Shown here: piece by piece, positions 7,835 through 51,410 of the stretch
Layout of the letters: every line of letters starts with the position of its first letter
Position numbering within the stretch: position 1 is the first letter of the stretch
DNA from: Chloroflexota bacterium
Lineage (GTDB): Bacteria; Chloroflexota; UBA11872; VXOZ01
NCBI GenBank assembly: GCA_022824225.1
Contig: JAJEAH010000066.1
Coordinates: forward strand, 1 to 52,182
Direction: 5' to 3'
DNA length: 52,182 bases
Notes under the pieces: generated by a model
The model's database searches: none
The model's input: only the letters and a program-made list of their open reading frames with translations
What the model was told of the DNA's origin: nothing
Translations under genes and position numbers: made by a program

Positions 7835-8761
7835 GTGAAGAAACTCTCACGAGCGGCGTTTGAGCGCGGGCTTTCATTTGTGAGAAAGCAAGGCCGGGCC
7901 CTCGATTGCGCCCTGCTCGCTTACTATTTCGAGCACGGAAGCGCCGAGGGCGTGTTCGCGGCTTTGGCGTCCTACCAAAATGACGACGGCGGTTTCGGCC
8001 ACGGCTTGGAGCCCGATCTCCGGACGACGGCGTCTTCAGTCATCGCGACGACGGTGGCGTTTCAGCATTTCCGGTCGCTGGGTGCTCCCGCCGTGCATCC
8101 TGTCGTGCGCAAGGCCATCGCGTATCTCCGCAATGCGTATGATGCATCACGCCAAGTGTGGCCGATCATTCCGCCGGAAGTGGAAAACGCCCCCCACGCG
8201 CCGTGGTGGGACTACGCCGGCAGCGAGGCGGGCTTTGGCGGCTTCCTGGTCAATCCCCGTGTGGAGATCGTCGGCTATTTGCATGACTACAGCGCGGCGG
8301 TGCCGGCGGAGCTGCTGGAGACGTTGACTGCGGCGGTTTTCGAACATCTGGATTCGCTGCCCGACGAGATGGAGATGCACGACCTGATTTGCTTCGTCAG
8401 CCTGGCGGAGACGGCAGCGTTGCCCCAATCCGACAGAGACCGCATTTGGCAGAAGGTCGCGAGAGCGGCAGAGACCGGCATGGCCCGAGAGCCGGCGCAG
8501 TTGACGGGCTACGTGCTCAGGCCCCTGTATGTCGTTTCAACTCCGGAATCGCCGCTTGCCGACCGGTTTGCTGAGGAAGTGTCAATGAACTTGGACTTCG
8601 AGATCGAGCAGCAGGGCCCGGACGGCGCGTGGACGCCGAGCTTCTCTTGGGGAGACCAGCATCCGGAGGCGTGGCAGGTAGCCAAGCAGGAATGGCAGGC
8701 CCGTATCACCTTGAAGAATCTCAGGATTCTGCGTGACTTTGGCCGCATCGAGTCTCTCTGA
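7835..8761 (+). CDS. Alpha-alpha-toroid (prenyltransferase/terpene-cyclase-like) protein
   Basis: 308 aa. Near residues 47-60 is a QNDDGGFGHGLEPD block that resembles the glycine-rich QW-type repeat of squalene cyclases and protein prenyltransferases. Regular helices follow, with a second weak repeat near PDGAWTPSFSWGD, close to the C-terminus. The fold inference is moderate. The acidic DxDD catalytic motif of class II cyclases is not seen, so enzyme function is unproven. It starts with GTG at 7835, with GGAG 12 nt upstream, a slightly long spacing. It has no signal peptide or membrane segment. The gene stands alone. Confidence 0.7.
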   Translation: MKKLSRAAFERGLSFVRKQGRALDCALLAYYFEHGSAEGVFAALASYQNDDGGFGHGLEPDLRTTASSVIATTVAFQHFRSLGAPAVHPVVRKAIAYLRNAYDASRQVWPIIPPEVENAPHAPWWDYAGSEAGFGGFLVNPRVEIVGYLHDYSAAVPAELLETLTAAVFEHLDSLPDEMEMHDLICFVSLAETAALPQSDRDRIWQKVARAAETGMAREPAQLTGYVLRPLYVVSTPESPLADRFAEEVSMNLDFEIEQQGPDGAWTPSFSWGDQHPEAWQVAKQEWQARITLKNLRILRDFGRIESL

Positions 8762-8836
8762 AGCAGAACGGAGTCCGGGAGCGGCTGCTTAGAGCGGGCT
8801 GCTCGGCGTAGATTGCCCCGAGGCGGGAATCATCCC

Positions 8837-9051
8837 TGTAGGGGCGGTTCGCGAACAATGCGGTCGTATTGAGTTCTTGCCTTGGGTTATCATGGTAACC
8901 TGTGTTGCTAAGGCAATTGACACTCCGTTGTGCTGTCGTAGGGGCACGACATGTCGTGCCCCTACGACAGCGTTGACAAACCAAGTGGCAACTGTCTATT
9001 GCTTGCTCTCGACTCTAATGCGACACCATTGGTTCGCGAACCGCCCCTACA
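8837..9051. mobile_element. MITE-like nested palindromic element
   Basis: About 215 bp. The left end TGTAGGGGCGGTTCGCGAAC (8837-8856, followed by AATG) is the reverse complement of the right end ending in CCGCCCCTACA (9027-9051), apart from one inserted G. A perfect 40-bp palindrome lies between them (8932-8971), centred on CACGACATGTCGTG. A near-palindrome GGTTATCATGGTAACC is at 8885-8900. No coding potential is visible. Terminal inverted repeats plus small size suggest a non-autonomous element or a folded intergenic repeat. No clear target-site duplication could be identified. Confidence 0.7.
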
Positions 9052-9088
9052 CCGCCAGGCAGCGATACCCATGCGTGCGCCAAGCGGG

Positions 9089-9811
9089 TTACGGCACGTC
9101 CATGGTGCGCAGGCGATAAAGCGTCAGCAAGAAGAAAGCCGCGATCACGACACCCGTGCCGACGATGGCGGCGGGAAACTCGATCACGCGGGATTCGAAC
9201 ACCGCGAAACCCTCTTCATCCAAGCCGTGCAGCAGCGCCAATGTGTAGCCGCGGACGCTAAGGTAGCGGACGCCGCTCACGATAGAGCTGAGCAGTCCCT
9301 CCCACACCAGCACGTATACCAGGCCGTAGGCGATGGCGCGTGGTGTCAACATGCCGGCCAACGTGAAGATCGAGGCATAGGCGGTTACGCCCGCCGCCAA
9401 TACCAGCGCCAGCAAGCCGGCAACCTGCACTTCGGCGCCGAGTAGGATCGCGGCGGCAACGCCGCTGGCAACGACGAGGGGCACGGCTACCGCCAGCGTG
9501 GCAAGTAGCTTGGCCAGGACGATGGACACTCGCGCCACGGGTTTGAGGACCAGGAAGTACAGCGTCCTGTCTTCCAGTTCGTTGCCGAAGGCGGCGCTCG
9601 CCAGCGCCATGGTCACGATGGGCATTATGCCGCCGATTACCATGCCGTCGATGATGAGGTCGATGGTCTCGTTGCTGAACGCCAGTTCCGATTCCCCCAG
9701 CACTCGAATGAGTATGACCAATAGGGCGGGCATGGCCGCGAGCAGCCCGATCACGAGCGCGCGCCACCGGCCGAGGATTTGTCTGAGTGAAAGCCGGAGT
9801 ATCTCAGCCAT
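9089..9811 (-). CDS. ABC-2 type transporter permease
   Basis: 240 aa with about six hydrophobic segments (for example residues 19-36, 60-75, 103-125, 130-152 and the last 25). It is the membrane half of the downstream ABC pair. The start ATG lies directly against the stop of the ATPase gene (stop 9812-9814), which indicates translational coupling. ABC-2 permeases export lipids, polysaccharides, drugs or proteins; the substrate cannot be inferred. It is the last gene of the four-gene operon and ends before the palindromic element. Confidence 0.85.
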   Translation of the reverse strand: MAEILRLSLRQILGRWRALVIGLLAAMPALLVILIRVLGESELAFSNETIDLIIDGMVIGGIMPIVTMALASAAFGNELEDRTLYFLVLKPVARVSIVLAKLLATLAVAVPLVVASGVAAAILLGAEVQVAGLLALVLAAGVTAYASIFTLAGMLTPRAIAYGLVYVLVWEGLLSSIVSGVRYLSVRGYTLALLHGLDEEGFAVFESRVIEFPAAIVGTGVVIAAFFLLTLYRLRTMDVP

Positions 9812-43837: not shown

Positions 43838-45169
43838 CTAGCCAAACATGCGCATGATGTTCTTGGGAATCTTGCCTTTGGCCAGCGACTTCATCACAGT
43901 CTGCATCTGGCGGAAATTGTGGAGGAGCTGGTTGACTTCAGCGGGGGTCGTGCCGCTGCCGGCCGCGATGCGCCGCCGCCGCGAGCCGTCGATGATGCCG
44001 GGATTGCGCCGTTCCGCCGGTGTCATGGAGTAGATCATCGCCTCCACGCGGGCGAACTGCTGTTCGTCCAACGCCGCGGCCATGGCCGGGTTGCGCATGA
44101 ACTGACCCATGCCGGGCAGCATTTCGAGTATCTGCCCCATGGACCCCATCTTCTTGATCTGCTGCAACTGCTCGACGAAGTCTTCCAACGTAAACGTGGC
44201 GGTGCGCAGCTTCTTCTCGATGTCTGCCGCTTGCTCGGCGTCGATGGTCTCTTCCGCGCGCTCGATGAGGCTCAGCACGTCGCCCATGCCCAGGATGCGT
44301 GAGGCAAGCCGGTCAGGGTAGAACGGTTCCAGCGGCTCGATCTTCTCGCCGCTGCCCATGAACCGGATCGGGATGCCGGTCACGCTCCGCACGGACAGCG
44401 CCGCGCCGCCGCGAGCGTCGCCGTCGGTTTTCGTGAGGACCAGGCCGGTCGTGGGCACGCGCTCGTGGAACGCCTGCGCCACGCGCACGGCTTCCTGGCC
44501 CGTCATCGCGTCGGCTACCAGTAGAACTTCTTGCGGCGACACCGCCTCAGCGATCTCCTGAATCTCCTCCATCATCGCCTCGTCGATTTGCAGCCGACCG
44601 GCGGTATCGATGATGACGGTGGACAAGCGCTTCTGGCGCGCCCGTTCGACGGCCGACTCGGCGATGCGCACCGGGGACTCTTTCGCGCCCAGGGCATGCA
44701 CCGGCACGTCGATCTGCTTGCCGATCGTTTCCAACTGTTCGATGGCTGCGGGACGGTAAATGTCCGCCGCCGCCAGCAGGCAGCGCTGGCCTTGCTTGCG
44801 CAGGGCCAGAGCGAGCTTGCCCGCTGCGGTGGTCTTGCCTGAGCCCTGCAGGCCGACCAGCATGATGACGTGGGGCGGAGAACCTGTCAGGCGGAGCGGC
44901 GCGGGTTCGCCGAGCAGGCGAATGAGTTCTTCGTGGACGATCTTGACGACCTGCTGGCCCGGCGTCAGGCTCTCCAAGACTTCCGCGCCGATCGCACGCT
45001 CCCGCAGGGACTTGAGAAAGTCGCGCACAACCCTGAAGTTGACGTCCGCCTCCAGCAGGGCCATGCGCACTTCGCGCAAGGCCGCGTTGACATCGGCTTC
45101 GGTCAGCTTGCCGCGGCCCCGCAGCTTCTGGAAGACGTCCTGCAGGCGATCGGACAGTGTCTCAAACAT
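43838..45169 (-). CDS. ffh: Signal recognition particle GTPase Ffh
   Basis: 443 aa. N domain (MFETLSDRLQDVFQKL), G domain with P-loop VGLQGSGKTTAAGKL, the insertion-box region DIYRPAAIEQL, IIDTAGRLQ, TKTDGDARGG, and a C-terminal M domain with ILEMLPGMG and SRRRRIAAGSGT for RNA and signal-sequence binding, ending KNIMRMFG. The P-loop domain and M domain together distinguish it from FtsY. It is the last gene of a leftward cluster; it lies 108 bp after the nucleotidylyltransferase. Its RNA partner was not found in this window. Confidence 0.97.
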   Translation of the reverse strand: MFETLSDRLQDVFQKLRGRGKLTEADVNAALREVRMALLEADVNFRVVRDFLKSLRERAIGAEVLESLTPGQQVVKIVHEELIRLLGEPAPLRLTGSPPHVIMLVGLQGSGKTTAAGKLALALRKQGQRCLLAAADIYRPAAIEQLETIGKQIDVPVHALGAKESPVRIAESAVERARQKRLSTVIIDTAGRLQIDEAMMEEIQEIAEAVSPQEVLLVADAMTGQEAVRVAQAFHERVPTTGLVLTKTDGDARGGAALSVRSVTGIPIRFMGSGEKIEPLEPFYPDRLASRILGMGDVLSLIERAEETIDAEQAADIEKKLRTATFTLEDFVEQLQQIKKMGSMGQILEMLPGMGQFMRNPAMAAALDEQQFARVEAMIYSMTPAERRNPGIIDGSRRRRIAAGSGTTPAEVNQLLHNFRQMQTVMKSLAKGKIPKNIMRMFG

Positions 45170-46076: not shown

Positions 46077-47018
46077 TCACGCGGTCGCCGGTTCGCCCAG
46101 CAGGGCGCGTACGAAGCGCGTGCTGTCGAACTCATCCATGTCGTTCAGTTGCTCGCCCGTGCCGACGAACTTGATGGGGAGTTGCAACTCCCGGGCGATC
46201 CCAAATACGCTCCCGCCCCGGGCGGTGCTATCGAGCTTGGTAATAATCAGACCGGAGAGGCTGACGGCATCCTGGAATATCCTGGCCTGGTTGAGCACGT
46301 TTTGCCCGGTGATGGCGTCCATGACGAGCAGCGCTTCTATGGCGTCGGCGCCCACGCGGCTGACGGCAATGCGCTGCACTTTGCGCAACTCATCCATCAG
46401 GTTCGACTTGGTGTGCAAGCGGCCCGCGGTATCCACGATGAGGTGCGATGCCTTGCGCGCCAGAGCGGAGTCGACTGCGTCGAACACGACCGCGCCGGGG
46501 TCGGCCCCCGGCTGCTGGGCGATGAGGGGCACGTCCACTCGCTCCGCCCACACGCGCAGTTGGTCGATGGCGGCTGCGCGAAACGTGTCGGCCGCGGCCA
46601 ACATGCACGAGTGGCCCTGTTCCTGCAGCCAATGGGCCAGCTTTGCCGACATCGTGGTCTTGCCGGAGCCGTTCACGCCGACCATCAGGACAACCGTGAG
46701 GGGTTCGGCGCGGCGCAGCGTATCGGACTGCGCCGGTAGCTGCTCCACCAATAGTTCTTCCACCAGGCCGTGAGCGTCCGCAGCCGCTTCCAAACGGGCG
46801 GCCGCGATTGACTCCCGCGCGCGCTCGATGAGTTCATCGGCCAGATACGGGCCCACGTCGGCCATGATGAAGGTGTCTTCCAACTCTTCCCAGAAGTCTT
46901 CATCCAGCTTGACACCGGGCCGGAAGAGGTCGCGGAGGGCGGAAAAGGCGCCCCCGCGGCTCTTCTCTACGCTCTCTTCCAGCGACGTGCCGCCGAACAG
47001 TTGCTTGAATCGTTTCAC
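46077..47018 (-). CDS. ftsY: Signal recognition particle receptor FtsY
   Basis: 313 aa. Domains: short N-terminal region without the long acidic A domain of E. coli, N domain (VKRFKQLFGGTSLEE), and G domain with VGVNGSGKTTMSAKLAHW, AADTFRAAAIDQL, LIVDTAGRLHT, ITKLDSTARGG. The start GTG 47018 was inferred from the family N-terminus; an in-frame extension reaches 47120 but is poorly conserved, and the ribosome site is weak. It docks the SRP-ribosome complex at the membrane, acting with Ffh encoded two genes downstream. Confidence 0.95.
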   Translation of the reverse strand: MKRFKQLFGGTSLEESVEKSRGGAFSALRDLFRPGVKLDEDFWEELEDTFIMADVGPYLADELIERARESIAAARLEAAADAHGLVEELLVEQLPAQSDTLRRAEPLTVVLMVGVNGSGKTTMSAKLAHWLQEQGHSCMLAAADTFRAAAIDQLRVWAERVDVPLIAQQPGADPGAVVFDAVDSALARKASHLIVDTAGRLHTKSNLMDELRKVQRIAVSRVGADAIEALLVMDAITGQNVLNQARIFQDAVSLSGLIITKLDSTARGGSVFGIARELQLPIKFVGTGEQLNDMDEFDSTRFVRALLGEPATA

Positions 47019-47129
47019 TCTCGTGCTTTCATGTTGTGCAATGCGTGTGCTGCCGGGAGACTTCCAGGTAGGGGACTGGCTGCGCGCCGGTACGAGCCAC
47101 GCCGGGACGAGAGACTCCATGCGGCGCGG

Positions 47130-47963
47130 CTACTGTGTAAGATAGACGCCCACTTCCGCCAAAGACGTGTAATCCGTACTCCCGTAATTGCTCAATATGA
47201 CAATTCTAACGTACCAAGTAGGCCGCGTTTCATACGTAAACCGCTGCAGGAGCGGGCTCTCCGCCAGCGTGAAGGCGCCGACCTCTTCCCACGGCCCCTC
47301 CGCTGATTCCGAACTGACGTAGACCTGGAAGTCCCGGACCCACGTCTCCGGCGGGCTCAGTTCGCTGGCTTGCAGCGTTACCGTGTTGGAAAACGCCTGG
47401 CCGCCGGCGAGCACCTGGCGTTCGATGGCAAACACGATTTCCTGGGGAAAGGCGGCGTCCGCCGACCGCCAGTCCGGGACTTGCGGATCGGCCCAGCCGT
47501 CCACCAGCCGCTTGGCCACGTGGTCGCCTTCGCCGCGCTCGCCGGTGGCCGCCAAGACCTGTCCGCCGACAATTGCCTCCACGAGGTTGAGGCCCTCGGT
47601 AGTTTGCAGCGTGCCGCGAAACGCTCGGGCCACCCGCGCCGCTTCTTCCGGTTCCAAGGTGACCTGTGAGATCACGCGGCCAAAGGCAAAGCCAACCACC
47701 ACGATCAGGAGCAAGAACCCCAGAGAGAACAACACCGATGAGCGCTTCGGGGCAAAGTCCTTGAGCTTTTCCAGGAACGGCCGCTGGCGGCGCGCCTGGA
47801 TCGCGTCGTAGGCGGTGGCGCACTGCCGGCAAAACTCCTGTTCGCCGCGCGCTGTCAAGCACTCATCGCAGTAGACAGTGCCACAGCGATCGCAACGGTT
47901 CGTAGTCCTGCGATGCGGATGGTTGTAGCATGCGTACTGTTCTCGCAGCAGAATCTTTGCCAT
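47130..47963 (-). CDS. Zinc-finger, single-pass membrane protein with extracellular discoidin-like domain
   Basis: 277 aa. Residues about 12-49 form a B-box-like zinc finger (CYNHPHRRTTNRCDRCG, then CDECL and CRQC). A helix follows near residues 77-96 (SVLFSLGFLLLIVVVGFAFG). The remaining extracytoplasmic 170 residues end in a beta-rich region with VQVYVS-like strands, GPWEEVGAFTL, TWYVRIVILSNYG and LAEVGVYL, matching the F5/8-type C (discoidin) pattern. Cytoplasmic zinc finger plus outer carbohydrate-binding-like domain suggests a sensor or anchor. It lies upstream of ftsY on the same strand. Confidence 0.7.
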   Translation of the reverse strand: MAKILLREQYACYNHPHRRTTNRCDRCGTVYCDECLTARGEQEFCRQCATAYDAIQARRQRPFLEKLKDFAPKRSSVLFSLGFLLLIVVVGFAFGRVISQVTLEPEEAARVARAFRGTLQTTEGLNLVEAIVGGQVLAATGERGEGDHVAKRLVDGWADPQVPDWRSADAAFPQEIVFAIERQVLAGGQAFSNTVTLQASELSPPETWVRDFQVYVSSESAEGPWEEVGAFTLAESPLLQRFTYETRPTWYVRIVILSNYGSTDYTSLAEVGVYLTQ

Positions 47964-48282: not shown

Positions 48283-48604
48283 TGTTTCCCTTTTCTTGCA
48301 GGCTCAGCCACCGCGCTCCTGATGGGTGCTGCGATGGAACTGAGAGTAGACGCTCTCAATTATACCATTGGGCATCTCGCGCCTACTACACGGCACGGCG
48401 GAGCGCGGCCAGGCAGGACTCTCGCCGGCCATACGAGCACAGCATTGCCACCGGTCTGGGGCAGCGTGTGCGGCCGGGTTCTTCAGCGTCGCAGCCGCCC
48501 GCTGCGGGAAGGGCGGGCCGGTGCGAAAGTCCGGAACCGGCCGCGAAGACGGCTCGCCGCGGCAAACGGCCCGGCGTTAGCCTCTCAACACGGCAGACGC
48601 GGAA
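48283..48604. other. Interval between the zinc-ribbon gene and the SDR gene
   Basis: 322 bp. The left part holds the promoter of the leftward zinc-ribbon gene. The right part, about 48490-48570, is very GC-rich and self-complementary: GGGAAGGGCGGGCCGGTGCG followed by AAAGTCCGGAACCGGCC. It recalls the core of cobalamin riboswitches (GGTG, AA, TCCGG) on the plus strand, but no gene is read rightward from it. Confidence 0.35.
48359..48367 (-). promoter_or_regulatory. Extended -10 promoter of the zinc-ribbon gene
   Basis: On the minus strand TGGTATAAT is a perfect extended -10 (TG, one base, TATAAT). The -35 position (AGTAGG) is poor, as expected for extended -10 promoters. The start codon is about 77 nt downstream. 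Confidence 0.65.
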
Positions 48605-49372
48605 CTAGATGTGGATGGTGCGCCCGCCGTCTACGACGACGGCTGCGCCGGTTATGTAGGCCGCTTCCGGCGACGCCAGGAACGCGATCGTGTTGGCGAT
48701 GTCGCGGCCCTCCCCCACCCGCCGCAGCGGTGTCTTTTGCAGGAACTGGGCCGTGCCTTCCTCGAACGTCAGGCCGTCTTCAGCCAAGTTTTCCCGCATC
48801 ATGTCGGTGTCGATGGCGCCGGGCAGCACGCAATTGACGCGAATCTTGTCGTCGCCGAATTCAGTGGCCATGGCTTTGGTGAGCGCGACCACCGCGCCCT
48901 TGGTGGCCGTATATGCCGTGGTGCGCGCCGTAGTCGCGATGGCGCGGGCGGAAGCAATGTTGACGATGCTGCCTCCGCCTAACTCTTGCATAGCAGGGAC
49001 GCAGTACTTGCTGCAGAGGAATATCCCAGTCAGGTTTACGGCCAGGACGTGATTCCACTGCGCCAGCGTGGTCTCGACGAGCGGCGTGTAGAGGCCGATG
49101 CCGGCATTGTTGATGAGAATGTCAATGCGGCCAAAGCGCTCGCGCGCAGTCTGGGCGAGGCGTTCGGTGTCGGCTTCGCTGGCGACATCCACCTGCGCGC
49201 CGATGGCCGCGCCGCCCGCAGCTTCGATAGCGGCGGCAACCGACGCGGCGGTCGCCGGGTTCAGGTCTGCCACCACGATTTTAGCGCCCGCCGCCGCCAA
49301 GCGTTCGGCCGTTGCCCGGCCGATGCCCCGTCCGGCTCCTGTAACTATTGCCACGCTATCGATTAGTTGCAT
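48605..49372 (-). CDS. Short-chain dehydrogenase/reductase
   Basis: 255 aa classical SDR. Cofactor motif TGAGRGIG (about residues 11-18), NNAG, catalytic Ser in VNIASARA, YxxxK in AYTATKGAVV and the C-terminal ITGAAVVVDGG. The Asp in VVADLN at the end of the second strand suggests a preference for NAD. The start ATG 49372 follows GAGG by 6 nt; a GTG four codons earlier overlaps that site. Substrate unknown; PhyH and Gfo-type genes nearby suggest catabolism of an alcohol or sugar-like compound. Confidence 0.92.
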   Translation of the reverse strand: MQLIDSVAIVTGAGRGIGRATAERLAAAGAKIVVADLNPATAASVAAAIEAAGGAAIGAQVDVASEADTERLAQTARERFGRIDILINNAGIGLYTPLVETTLAQWNHVLAVNLTGIFLCSKYCVPAMQELGGGSIVNIASARAIATTARTTAYTATKGAVVALTKAMATEFGDDKIRVNCVLPGAIDTDMMRENLAEDGLTFEEGTAQFLQKTPLRRVGEGRDIANTIAFLASPEAAYITGAAVVVDGGRTIHI

Positions 49373-49426
49373 GAGAATCCTCACTTGATGGAGCGAAAGT
49401 GCATGCGATTTCCCAAGGAGATGCTC

Positions 49427-50080
49427 TCAAAACCATGGATGGTTGAGAGACTGAAATAGGCCCTTCTTAATGAGACGAAAGTACTCGCTCTCACGAAGCA
49501 AGGAGCTAATTGGCTCAAGGTGCGCCCATTTCCTTGCAAATGTCTCATAGGTCTCATTGTTCATGAGGTTTTTATTGGCGACTATACCAGACTCGATCAT
49601 TTCATCAGTTGTTGCAAAGCCCTTTATGTACGCCATCTTTTCTTTCTCTACAAAGTGGACACAAACGTAGAATTCTATCCTAGTATCGCGGACCTTTTCA
49701 GGTTTGACTTGGATTTCGCAACGGGTGTCATGGGAAGTCGTATAGATGTAGATGTACCTGCCGTCGGCAGTCGCAAAGTCCGTCCATTCATCAAATACAT
49801 GCTTGAGCGGAGATGGGGTCTTTCTTTGCTTAATGAGGAATTTGGCAAATGCAATATCACCGATTTTGTGTCTACGCCAATTGTCGACCCGATTCTTCGA
49901 TGTGCGCAACGGGAATGGGGTGGGCTGCCATTCTTGTTTTGGTGCTTCATGCGCAAAGCTGTTGGCTTTTTCCAACTCTTCTGTAGTAAGACGAATCGTT
50001 CCTGGATCTATGCGGCTTCGGCAGTCTATACACGAAACCGCGAGAATGCCATGTTTGCATACGTCGCTGAGATTCGACAC
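49427..50080 (-). CDS. AT-rich orphan protein with N-terminal zinc finger
   Basis: 217 aa, base composition clearly lower in GC than its neighbours, which suggests horizontal transfer. The N-terminus CKHGILAVSCIDCRSR resembles a zinc-binding knuckle. The middle contains ATADGRYIYIYTT, then CEIQVKPEK and IEFYVCVHFVEKEKMAYIKGF. The order acidic residue, E/Q-x-K, and a following hydrophobic strand with FYVCVHF recalls PD-(D/E)XK nuclease folds, where a basic-acidic pair sits on a central sheet; this is only an inference. The start is GTG 50080, directly after an in-frame stop; the ribosome site is weak. The opposite-strand frame is Phe/Cys-rich and not credible. No homologue is recognised. Confidence 0.6.
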   Translation of the reverse strand: MSNLSDVCKHGILAVSCIDCRSRIDPGTIRLTTEELEKANSFAHEAPKQEWQPTPFPLRTSKNRVDNWRRHKIGDIAFAKFLIKQRKTPSPLKHVFDEWTDFATADGRYIYIYTTSHDTRCEIQVKPEKVRDTRIEFYVCVHFVEKEKMAYIKGFATTDEMIESGIVANKNLMNNETYETFARKWAHLEPISSLLRESEYFRLIKKGLFQSLNHPWF

Positions 50081-50227
50081 CGGCTAAAGTCCTACGCCAT
50101 TGCCTTGAGCAGTATAAGTTGAACACACGTTCCGCTGCCCTATGGAACAAGCTGTGTGACTAGCCTGTCGTCACCGGAACAGTCAGACTTTCACGATTGA
50201 GACTGGGATACGTGCTGTGGGACTGCA

Positions 50228-51070
50228 CTAGCGAAAACTCAAGCAGGCCCACTCTTCGGCACTCCCGACCACGCTCGCGGGATTGAAGGAACTCCGAGCG
50301 ATGTGGCCTTCTTCCTTGCGCAATGTGGACTGGGCGGCGTCCTGGTAGCGCCAGTCGAAACTCCAGCGAATCTTGCCGCTGTAGTTGGGTTGCCCGCGGT
50401 GGAAGAGCAGGTTCTGGAAGAGCACTACGTCCCCGGGGTCGAGTTCCACGTCGATGGCCGCGTCCAGGTGTGGGCGCAGGGATTCGGGCGCGATTTCCAG
50501 GTAGTACTCCCGCTTTTCGTGGGGCACGCTGCCCAGCTTGTGGGTGCCCGGCACGAACTGCATGCAGCCGTTCTCCGCCCGGGCCGGCACCAGCGGCGTC
50601 CAGACGTTCACCATGCGCTGCAATTCCACGCTCTCCTGGTCGCCGGAGACTTGCTCGGTGTAGCCGCCGTCCTGGTGCCAGAGCACCTCGGTCCCCTTCC
50701 AATCGGGGAACTTTGGCCGGGCGGTGTAGTTGGGGTACAGGCGGACTTCCGGCCCGATGAGCAGTTCGACCACGTCGAGGAGGGCCGGGTTGAAGAAGAG
50801 ATCGAAGAGGCCCGCCAGGTGCAGTTCGCGGCGGAAAGACTTGGGGGCGAGGTCTAAGTGGTTTTCGTAGAGCTTGTAGAAGCGGGTCTCGAACGGCTCT
50901 TGCGCCATCCCGCTTGACAACGTGCCGTCGGCAACGAGTTGGCGCGCGCTTCTTTCCACCAGTTCTTCCATGGCGGCGCGGGACTGCGCGATCACATGCT
51001 CATCGAGCAAGCCCTTTAGTGTTATGTACCCTTGGTTCTCAAACTGATGGCGTTGCGCATCTGCGTTCAT
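50228..51070 (-). CDS. Phytanoyl-CoA dioxygenase family protein (PhyH)
   Basis: 280 aa Fe(II)/2-oxoglutarate-dependent oxygenase. The iron triad fits: HxD in WHQDGGY (about residue 136) and the distal His in LFHRGQPN (about 223), followed by the Arg in KIRWSFDWR that binds oxoglutarate. The N-terminal helix HQFENQGYITLKGLL is typical. AGGAGA lies before the ATG. PhyH-family genes often serve catabolism of diverse small molecules in marine bacteria, so the substrate is open. It lies divergent from the Gfo-type gene and upstream of an SDR. Confidence 0.93.
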   Translation of the reverse strand: MNADAQRHQFENQGYITLKGLLDEHVIAQSRAAMEELVERSARQLVADGTLSSGMAQEPFETRFYKLYENHLDLAPKSFRRELHLAGLFDLFFNPALLDVVELLIGPEVRLYPNYTARPKFPDWKGTEVLWHQDGGYTEQVSGDQESVELQRMVNVWTPLVPARAENGCMQFVPGTHKLGSVPHEKREYYLEIAPESLRPHLDAAIDVELDPGDVVLFQNLLFHRGQPNYSGKIRWSFDWRYQDAAQSTLRKEEGHIARSSFNPASVVGSAEEWACLSFR

Positions 51071-51410
51071 GGATGTCTCCTAGCTTTCCTGCCGAGCGGC
51101 GAGACGGGCTGCGCGTGACGCACCGCGCCTCCATCTGCCTTGACGTTACCGTGCATGGTAGCACAGACAGGACGCGGTCACGCGCGGTGTTGGCCCGGCC
51201 GGCGCGTGCCATTGGCTTTCCGCAATCCTTCGACTTTGCGCGCCGGTCCTACCCGGCGCGGCGCCTAGTCGCTGCCGGTTGGTTCAGCTATACTTGACAC
51301 GTTGTGTACGGCCCGCGGGCGCCCGGCGCGCTGCGAGCGGAACGCCGGTGGTTGCCTCGGCGGGCGCGGGCAAAGAGTGATCGATTGCAGTGGAGAGGTA
51401 AGTCGGGAAA
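51071..51410. other. Divergent intergenic region before the Gfo-type gene
   Basis: 340 bp. TATACT (51289-51294, five of six -10 matches) and TTGACA (51294-51299) overlap, but neither forms a properly spaced promoter pair. The plus-strand frames starting near 51302 are Arg-rich shadows. Confidence 0.4.

What the first reader, a model, noticed from the sequence alone, without database searches (positions are those of the whole stretch)
49427..50080. AT-rich orphan of possible foreign origin, zinc knuckle plus PD-(D/E)XK-like pattern
Base composition and codon use depart strongly from neighbours, and the gene has its own zinc knuckle and a lysine motif (QVK) before a hydrophobic strand. It could be a nuclease of an uncharacterised defence or mobile system. 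No partner gene is beside it.
Basis: inference. Interest (0 to 1): 0.55.

Follow-up and report, generated by a model that had tools for sequence, protein, structure and literature searches.

The report
AT-rich orphan gene in variable slot
A small gene of apparently foreign origin sits in a chromosomal gap that other species of the same genus leave empty or fill with a defence-type DNA helicase carrying the same short zinc-binding-type tag; what the gene itself does, nuclease or not, could not be settled from sequence.

Summary
Window 49427-50080 (-) is an intact 217-codon gene, 46% GC in a 63% GC window, with atypical codon use and an N-terminal C-x-H-G-x5-C-x2-C-R motif. Protein searches accepted no relative in the 40 other held genomes of its class (5 of its genus), 400 genomes drawn from the phylum, or phage and plasmid records; narrower pattern scans of viral and GTDB contigs found none either. 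No family library names it. The new result is its address. The flanking PhyH and SDR genes lie 31-33 bp apart in three of five sister genomes. In the other two the same gap holds a DrmD-like SNF2 helicase (broken in one) whose N-terminus carries the same rare knuckle. The strict knuckle pattern matched 6 of 400 phylum genomes, 4 of them this genus. So the gene is cargo of a variable slot, tagged like defence-type helicases. The PD-(D/E)XK reading is not established: a D...[DEQ]-x-K pattern arises in 19% of shuffles, only 8 residues separate the lysine from the next strand of a weak model, and the structure models are unusable. Best guess: a horizontally acquired, knuckle-tagged, DNA-acting protein, possibly a PD-QxK-type nuclease.

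The parts
49427..50080 (-). Orphan gene, 217 aa, AT-rich, no accepted relative
50021..50059 (-). N-terminal zinc-knuckle-like motif C8-K-H10-G-x5-C17-x2-C20 (residues 8-20), also on the helicases in the same slot of G002 and G003
49703..49717 (-). E122-I-Q124-V-K126: possible PD-QxK-type motif III (not established)
   Evidence: the QxK variant is named in passages of PMC3874165 and PMC12707154
49778..49780 (-). D101, candidate motif II aspartate (inference only)
   Evidence: inference
49373..50227 (-). Variable slot: 855 bp between the PhyH stop and the conserved SDR ATG; 31, 33 and 33 bp in G001, G004, G005; 3314 bp in G002; 8398 bp in G003
50228..51070 (-). PhyH dioxygenase (PF05721, E 9.8e-28), conserved upstream neighbour
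   Evidence: (6 of 6 genus genomes; 75-76% DNA identity in the 5 others)
48605..49384 (-). SDR oxidoreductase (PF13561, E 5.7e-68), conserved downstream neighbour; conserved ATG at about 49372
   Evidence: (6 of 6 genus genomes; 72-78% DNA identity in the 5 others)

Best explanation
The gene is horizontally acquired cargo of a variable slot between two conserved metabolic genes, a slot that in this genus also holds a knuckle-tagged DNA-processing gene of defence type. Its product most likely acts on nucleic acid: the N-terminal CKHG...C..C knuckle (zinc binding inferred) would help position it on DNA or on a partner, and the body would carry the activity. My preferred form of that activity is cleavage of invading DNA by a divergent PD-QxK-type site (D101, Q124-x-K126). 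Shown: the foreign composition, the slot, its alternative contents, the shared knuckle. Inferred: zinc binding, action on nucleic acid, defence role. Weakly inferred: nuclease fold. My odds: foreign cargo in a variable slot 0.9; nucleic-acid-acting and defence-related 0.5; PD-(D/E)XK-type nuclease 0.3.
For: Empty site in G001, G004, G005 and other cargo in G002 and G003 at this same junction. G002's cargo is a 1065-aa helicase, best PADLOC match DrmD E 1.2e-148, SNF2 plus Helicase_C in Pfam, starting MDTDELCKHGIRIEACVTCRP. The knuckle pattern (second residue free) occurs once per genome in 6 of 6 genus genomes, reversed control 0: four lie in SNF2-type proteins (one of them the broken G003 copy), one in this gene, and one (G005) largely opposite a larger ORF, judged chance. 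G001's SNF2 protein also has a C-terminal Mrr_cat nuclease domain, E 1.9e-29. With the lysine required, 6 of 400 phylum genomes match, 4 of them this genus; reversed control 1 of 400. A more distant relative of the helicase (G239, 40% identity) also begins with CKHG. One viral-contig protein pairs the knuckle with a T5orf172/MUG113 domain (L078). The slot cargo is AT-rich in all three genomes that have it (0.473, 0.494, 0.501 against 0.633, 0.576, 0.582 around it).
Against: No homologue of the body was accepted, so no conserved residues can be shown. The QVK-type pattern appears in 18.7% of shuffles. [quoted passage not shown] The knuckle is not specific to defence: it also occurs in unrelated viral-contig frames. 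No defence gene lies beside the orphan. The only Pfam matches are weak and not nucleases: DUF1822 at E 0.0014 (18.2 bits, cut-off 25) and Luteo_P1-P2 at 0.092; the only PHROGs match is a family of unknown function at E 0.067.
Confidence: 0.42

Rival explanations
1. The body is not a nuclease but another small nucleic-acid-binding or regulatory protein of phage or mobile origin; the knuckle is a generic tag as on other phage proteins, and the gene has no dedicated defence function.
For: The pattern scan of viral contigs gave 25 stretches; in 21 the motif reads without a stop inside it, and 16 of those 21 stop-to-stop frames are under 100 residues. No nuclease family match for the orphan. [quoted passage not shown]
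Against: Shares its slot with a defence-type helicase carrying the same rare knuckle. tblastn of 50,697 phage and 72,556 plasmid records found no relative at E up to 0.1.
Confidence: 0.35
2. Domain swap at the site: the slot once held the knuckle-helicase, and recombination replaced the helicase body while keeping its 5' end, so the knuckle is inherited from the resident gene.
For: The helicase may be an old resident: G002-G003 helicase identity is 83.4%, about that of the flanking proteins (79.7% and 83.6%), while the unrooted tree of the flanks groups G003 with empty G005 and G004, and G002 with empty G001. Orphan and helicase N-termini align (DVCKHGI...C..CR with ELCKHGI...C..CR; blastp E 1e-4 in a two-sequence comparison without composition correction).
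Against: No nucleotide similarity beyond words of 5-7 bp between the orphan's and the helicase's 5' or 3' ends. Knuckles of this type also occur on viral-contig genes.
Confidence: 0.13
3. A neutral or short-lived ORF: captured foreign DNA with a fortuitously intact frame and no selected function.
For: Singleton in the collections searched; selection cannot be measured without relatives. The only promoter-like site in 49300-50350 lies inside the gene and is at shuffle level (1 found, 0.8 expected).
Against: Coding-like codon-position composition, a Shine-Dalgarno-like AGGA and a bounded start, an intact knuckle that shuffles did not give (0 of 20,000).
Confidence: 0.1

Closest known systems
DrmD-like SNF2 helicase in the same slot of G002 and G003 (PADLOC PDLC02623; NCBIfam NF038317 at 343 bits, cut-off 610)
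   Same: Same chromosomal gap; same N-terminal C-x-H-G-x5-C-x2-C-R knuckle; AT-rich; single gene in G002
   Different: 1065 aa with helicase domains; apart from the N-terminus nothing better than E 0.65 links it to the orphan. In G002 it fills the slot alone, so it is not a DISARM operon there
SNF2-Mrr protein of G001 (L065:6821-9376), best PADLOC match ZorD
   Same: Carries the knuckle (CKHGLPRGSCETCR) and an Mrr_cat nuclease domain with IQCK, resembling the orphan's IQVK
   Different: 851 aa, knuckle internal, at another locus; tblastn of the orphan against the loci in hand listed no match in L065 at E up to 1
Mrr-type PD-QxK nucleases (PF04471)
   Same: Q-x-K in place of (D/E)-x-K at motif III
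   Different: Orphan has no Mrr_cat match; spacing between strand 3 and the next strand is short for the usual helix
DUF1822 (PF08852)
   Same: Weak profile match to residues 89-167, E 0.0014
   Different: 18.2 bits against a cut-off of 25; covers 79 of 217 residues only

Membership tests
PD-(D/E)XK nuclease superfamily | Profile match to a catalogued family | tested here: not met
   No nuclease match in Pfam, NCBIfam, PADLOC, PHROGs; new families of this fold often escape such searches (PMC1913061, start of abstract and passages)
[quoted passage not shown]
   AlphaFold2 without relatives: mean pLDDT 30.0 and 37.7 for residues 63-200; Foldseek best E 2.0; only 8 residues between K126 and the next strand
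PD-(D/E)XK nuclease superfamily | Acidic residue and (D/E/Q)-x-K conserved across a family | not testable with these tools
   No relative accepted, so conservation cannot be shown; pattern present in 18.7% of shuffles
Mrr-type nucleases (PF04471) | Match to the Mrr_cat profile | tested here: not met
   None listed for the orphan with the limit at E 10 (the tool's filters drop most matches above about 0.1); L065, a positive control in the same call, E 1.9e-29
Zinc knuckle / short zinc-binding motif | Cys/His ligand set in short spacing | tested here: met
   C8-x-H10-x6-C17-x2-C20, 0 of 20,000 shuffles; zinc binding itself not tested; no Pfam zinc-finger match
DISARM system | Operon typically with methyltransferase, DrmA, DrmB, DrmC (PMC9142583, passages) | tested here: not met
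   Orphan stands between SDR and PhyH; in G002 only the helicase fills the slot
Horizontally acquired accessory gene in a variable slot | Empty site in relatives, deviant composition, alternative contents | tested here: met

The most novel reading that the evidence does not exclude
The knuckle is a constant tag of this slot, with interchangeable effector bodies behind it: a DrmD-like helicase in some species, a new small nuclease in another. A shared host or phage partner would recognise the tag, and the orphan would be the founding member of a new single-gene anti-phage nuclease family.
Probability: 0.1. Interest if true: 0.65.

Novelty: new variant of a known kind. Interest (0 to 1): 0.36.

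Why it matters
Single-gene slots that alternate between a known type of defence helicase and an unnamed gene are good places to find new defence proteins. Here a rare N-terminal knuckle links the two, which makes the orphan a concrete, testable candidate rather than a bare ORFan. If the tag turned out to recruit different effectors to the same target, it would be a simple modular rule for predicting further effectors.

Tried and rejected
Relatives of the orphan: protein search in own genome plus 100 relatives, 400 of the phylum (16 genomes besides the own one with weak matches at E 0.005-0.1, covering 34 to 106 query residues, 8 of the 16 with stops inside; not accepted), and the 41 held genomes of the class. 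Exact 8-residue-pattern scans of viral and GTDB contigs with the whole protein and with residues 60-165. The single GTDB match (L093) is a 22-residue reading outside any sensible gene and was rejected. tblastn of plasmid and phage records: none at E up to 0.1. A local tblastn against the loci in hand gave E 4e-4 to L017 and 0.001 to L008 and L002 (tiny search space, and these loci were fetched because they matched). L017's reading lies opposite a 972-aa ORF and L002's has a stop inside; L008's lies in an 828-residue frame, at 27% identity, and was not examined further.

Short DNA matches in congeners (a 26-bp match in G003, G004 and G005; others in G004) do not extend at protein level; rejected. 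DUF1822: weak, below cut-off; a search of the own genome and 14 control genomes found the family nowhere, so it stays open. Structure prediction without an alignment failed twice; Foldseek on the fragment model gave nothing below E 2.0 (50 of 90 matches shown). phmmer against solved structures: best E 0.59. No Rfam match in 48500-51200 and no tRNA in the window. Repeats around the gene are short, 10-22 nt and mostly mismatched. Promoter-like 1 (0.8 in shuffles) and terminator-like 3 (1.1, sd 1.2, in shuffles), all inside the gene. The G005 knuckle match lies largely opposite a 433-aa ORF or at its edge and is judged chance; of the two phylum matches outside the genus, one has a stop inside (G336, by eye) and one lies in a 61-residue frame (G123). 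A crude helix/strand propensity profile was too weak to use. Literature: a search for the knuckle listed 8 of 107 papers, none relevant by title or start of abstract, and one for DrmD with zinc listed 10 of 1,767, none holding the word DrmD; this does not show that the motif is undescribed.

Full report
Observation. The ORF at 49427-50080 on the minus strand is real as sequence: 217 codons, GTG start, no internal stop, an in-frame TAG two codons upstream and an AGGA 9 nt before the start. Its GC is 0.460, against 0.630 +/- 0.033 for windows of its size, the lowest region in the 52 kb; the lowest value away from the gene is 0.541. Codon use is equally out of line: GC3 0.516 against 0.762-0.853 in six neighbouring genes, and a CAI-like index of 0.414 against 0.638-0.750. 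GC by codon position (0.477/0.390/0.514) looks coding.

Distribution. The own genome has one copy. Protein searches of 100 relatives, the 40 other held genomes of the class and 400 genomes drawn from the phylum gave no relative at E up to 0.001; the 16 weaker matches were not accepted. Plasmid and phage records gave none, nor did pattern scans of viral and GTDB contigs. The contig scans detect close relatives only, because they need an exact 8-residue match. The gene is an orphan within what could be searched, not proven unique.

The slot. The two flanking genes, a PhyH dioxygenase and an SDR (Pfam), are found in 6 of 6 genus genomes. The distance from the PhyH stop to the conserved SDR start is 31 bp in G001, 33 bp in G004 and 33 bp in G005; 855 bp in the own genome; 3314 bp in G002; 8398 bp in G003. 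G002 carries one gene there, a 1065-aa SNF2-type helicase whose best PADLOC match is DrmD (E 1.2e-148); against NCBIfam DrmD it scores 343 bits, below the curated 610. G003 carries the same helicase in two pieces, with a TGA in the N-terminal one, separated by about 5 kb that includes an IS1595-family transposase. Helicase identity between G002 and G003 (83.4%) is about that of the flanking proteins (79.7% and 83.6%), which fits an old resident of the slot lost in several lineages. The unrooted tree of three flanking genes groups G003 with the empty G005 and G004, and G002 with the empty G001 (supports 0.992-1.000).

The shared knuckle. The G002 helicase begins MDTDELCKHGIRIEACVTCRP; the orphan begins MSNLSDVCKHGILAVSCIDCR. 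Spacing is identical (C-x-H-G-x5-C-x2-C-R). With the second residue free, the pattern occurs once in each of the six genus genomes, with no match of the reversed control: in the orphan, in the G002 helicase and the broken G003 copy, in SNF2 proteins of G001 and G004, and in G005 at a place largely opposite another ORF, judged chance. G001's protein ends in an Mrr_cat nuclease domain (E 1.9e-29). With lysine required, 6 of 400 phylum genomes match, 4 of them this genus (6 of whose genomes were in the draw); the reversed control matched 1 of 400. Of the other two, one has a stop in frame (by eye) and one lies in a 61-residue frame. A distant helicase relative in G239 also starts with CKHG. Finding the same rare motif on two otherwise dissimilar proteins in the same gap is hard to ascribe to coincidence. 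The motif is not exclusive to defence: the scan of viral contigs gave 25 stretches, 21 of which read it without a stop inside the motif, 5 of these in frames of 100 residues or more, including one protein with a T5orf172/MUG113 domain.

The body of the protein. Mrr-type nucleases use PD-QxK (passages of PMC3874165 and PMC12707154), so the glutamine is not an obstacle. But a D...h[DEQ]hK pattern of this looseness appears in 18.7% of shuffles of the same protein. No family library gives a nuclease match; the weak matches are DUF1822 (E 0.0014, below cut-off), Luteo_P1-P2 (0.092) and a PHROG of unknown function (0.067). Mrr_cat is not matched in the call where a true member scores E 1.9e-29. Structure prediction without relatives failed (mean pLDDT 30.0 and 37.7), and Foldseek on the fragment gave no match below E 2.0. 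In that weak fragment model the strand after QVK starts at residue 135, leaving 8 residues, with a 3-residue helical turn, for the helix that the superfamily's core (PMC1913061, passages) places between strands 3 and 4. This argues mildly against the fold. From recall, and from no call, the run 'AYIKGFATTDEMI' resembles the part that follows the catalytic strand in some phage PD-(D/E)XK proteins; this is a lead only.

Mechanism. The best-supported account is a horizontally acquired, knuckle-tagged protein that acts on nucleic acid, delivered into a slot where congeners carry a defence-type helicase. That it cuts invading DNA with a PD-QxK-type site is my preferred but weakly supported version (about 0.3). 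The main rival is a non-nuclease nucleic-acid binder of phage or mobile origin. A domain swap that kept the resident helicase's knuckle is possible but has no nucleotide support.

Verdict.

Noticed in passing
L051:4749-13141 (G003): The slot helicase is interrupted by about 5 kb with an IS1595-family transposase (8435-9418); two further ORFs there that were scanned match no Pfam family. The N-terminal helicase piece also has a TGA.
   Followed up: partly
L065:6821-9939 (G001) and L064:3208-5889 (G004): A conserved pair: a 182-aa protein (no Pfam match in G001) followed by an SNF2 protein with an internal knuckle, ending in an Mrr nuclease domain in G001; in G004 the SNF2 part is spread over two frames and cut by the contig end. 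Possibly a small two-gene, ZorD-like defence unit.
   Followed up: partly
L078:12446-13147 (viral contig): The same knuckle in a T5orf172/MUG113-domain protein, and in other viral-contig frames without a significant Pfam match (L079, L084, L101).
   Followed up: partly
L063:2795-2839 (G005): A frame reading CGHGILAVQCKACRS, very like the orphan's knuckle, in a + strand frame that is largely opposite a 433-aa ORF; judged chance, but a remnant is not excluded.
   Followed up: partly
L103 (G239): A distant relative of the helicase (40% identity) begins MAARCKHGLLLEFSACC, so the tag may be an old feature of this helicase clade.
   Followed up: partly
window 47130-47963: A gene with a Cys-rich N-terminal segment (CYNHPHRRTTNRCDRCGTVYCDECL) and a Sad1/UNC-like C-terminal match (E 8.1e-11), near two SRP54-type GTPase genes (43838-45169, 46077-47120).
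   Followed up: partly
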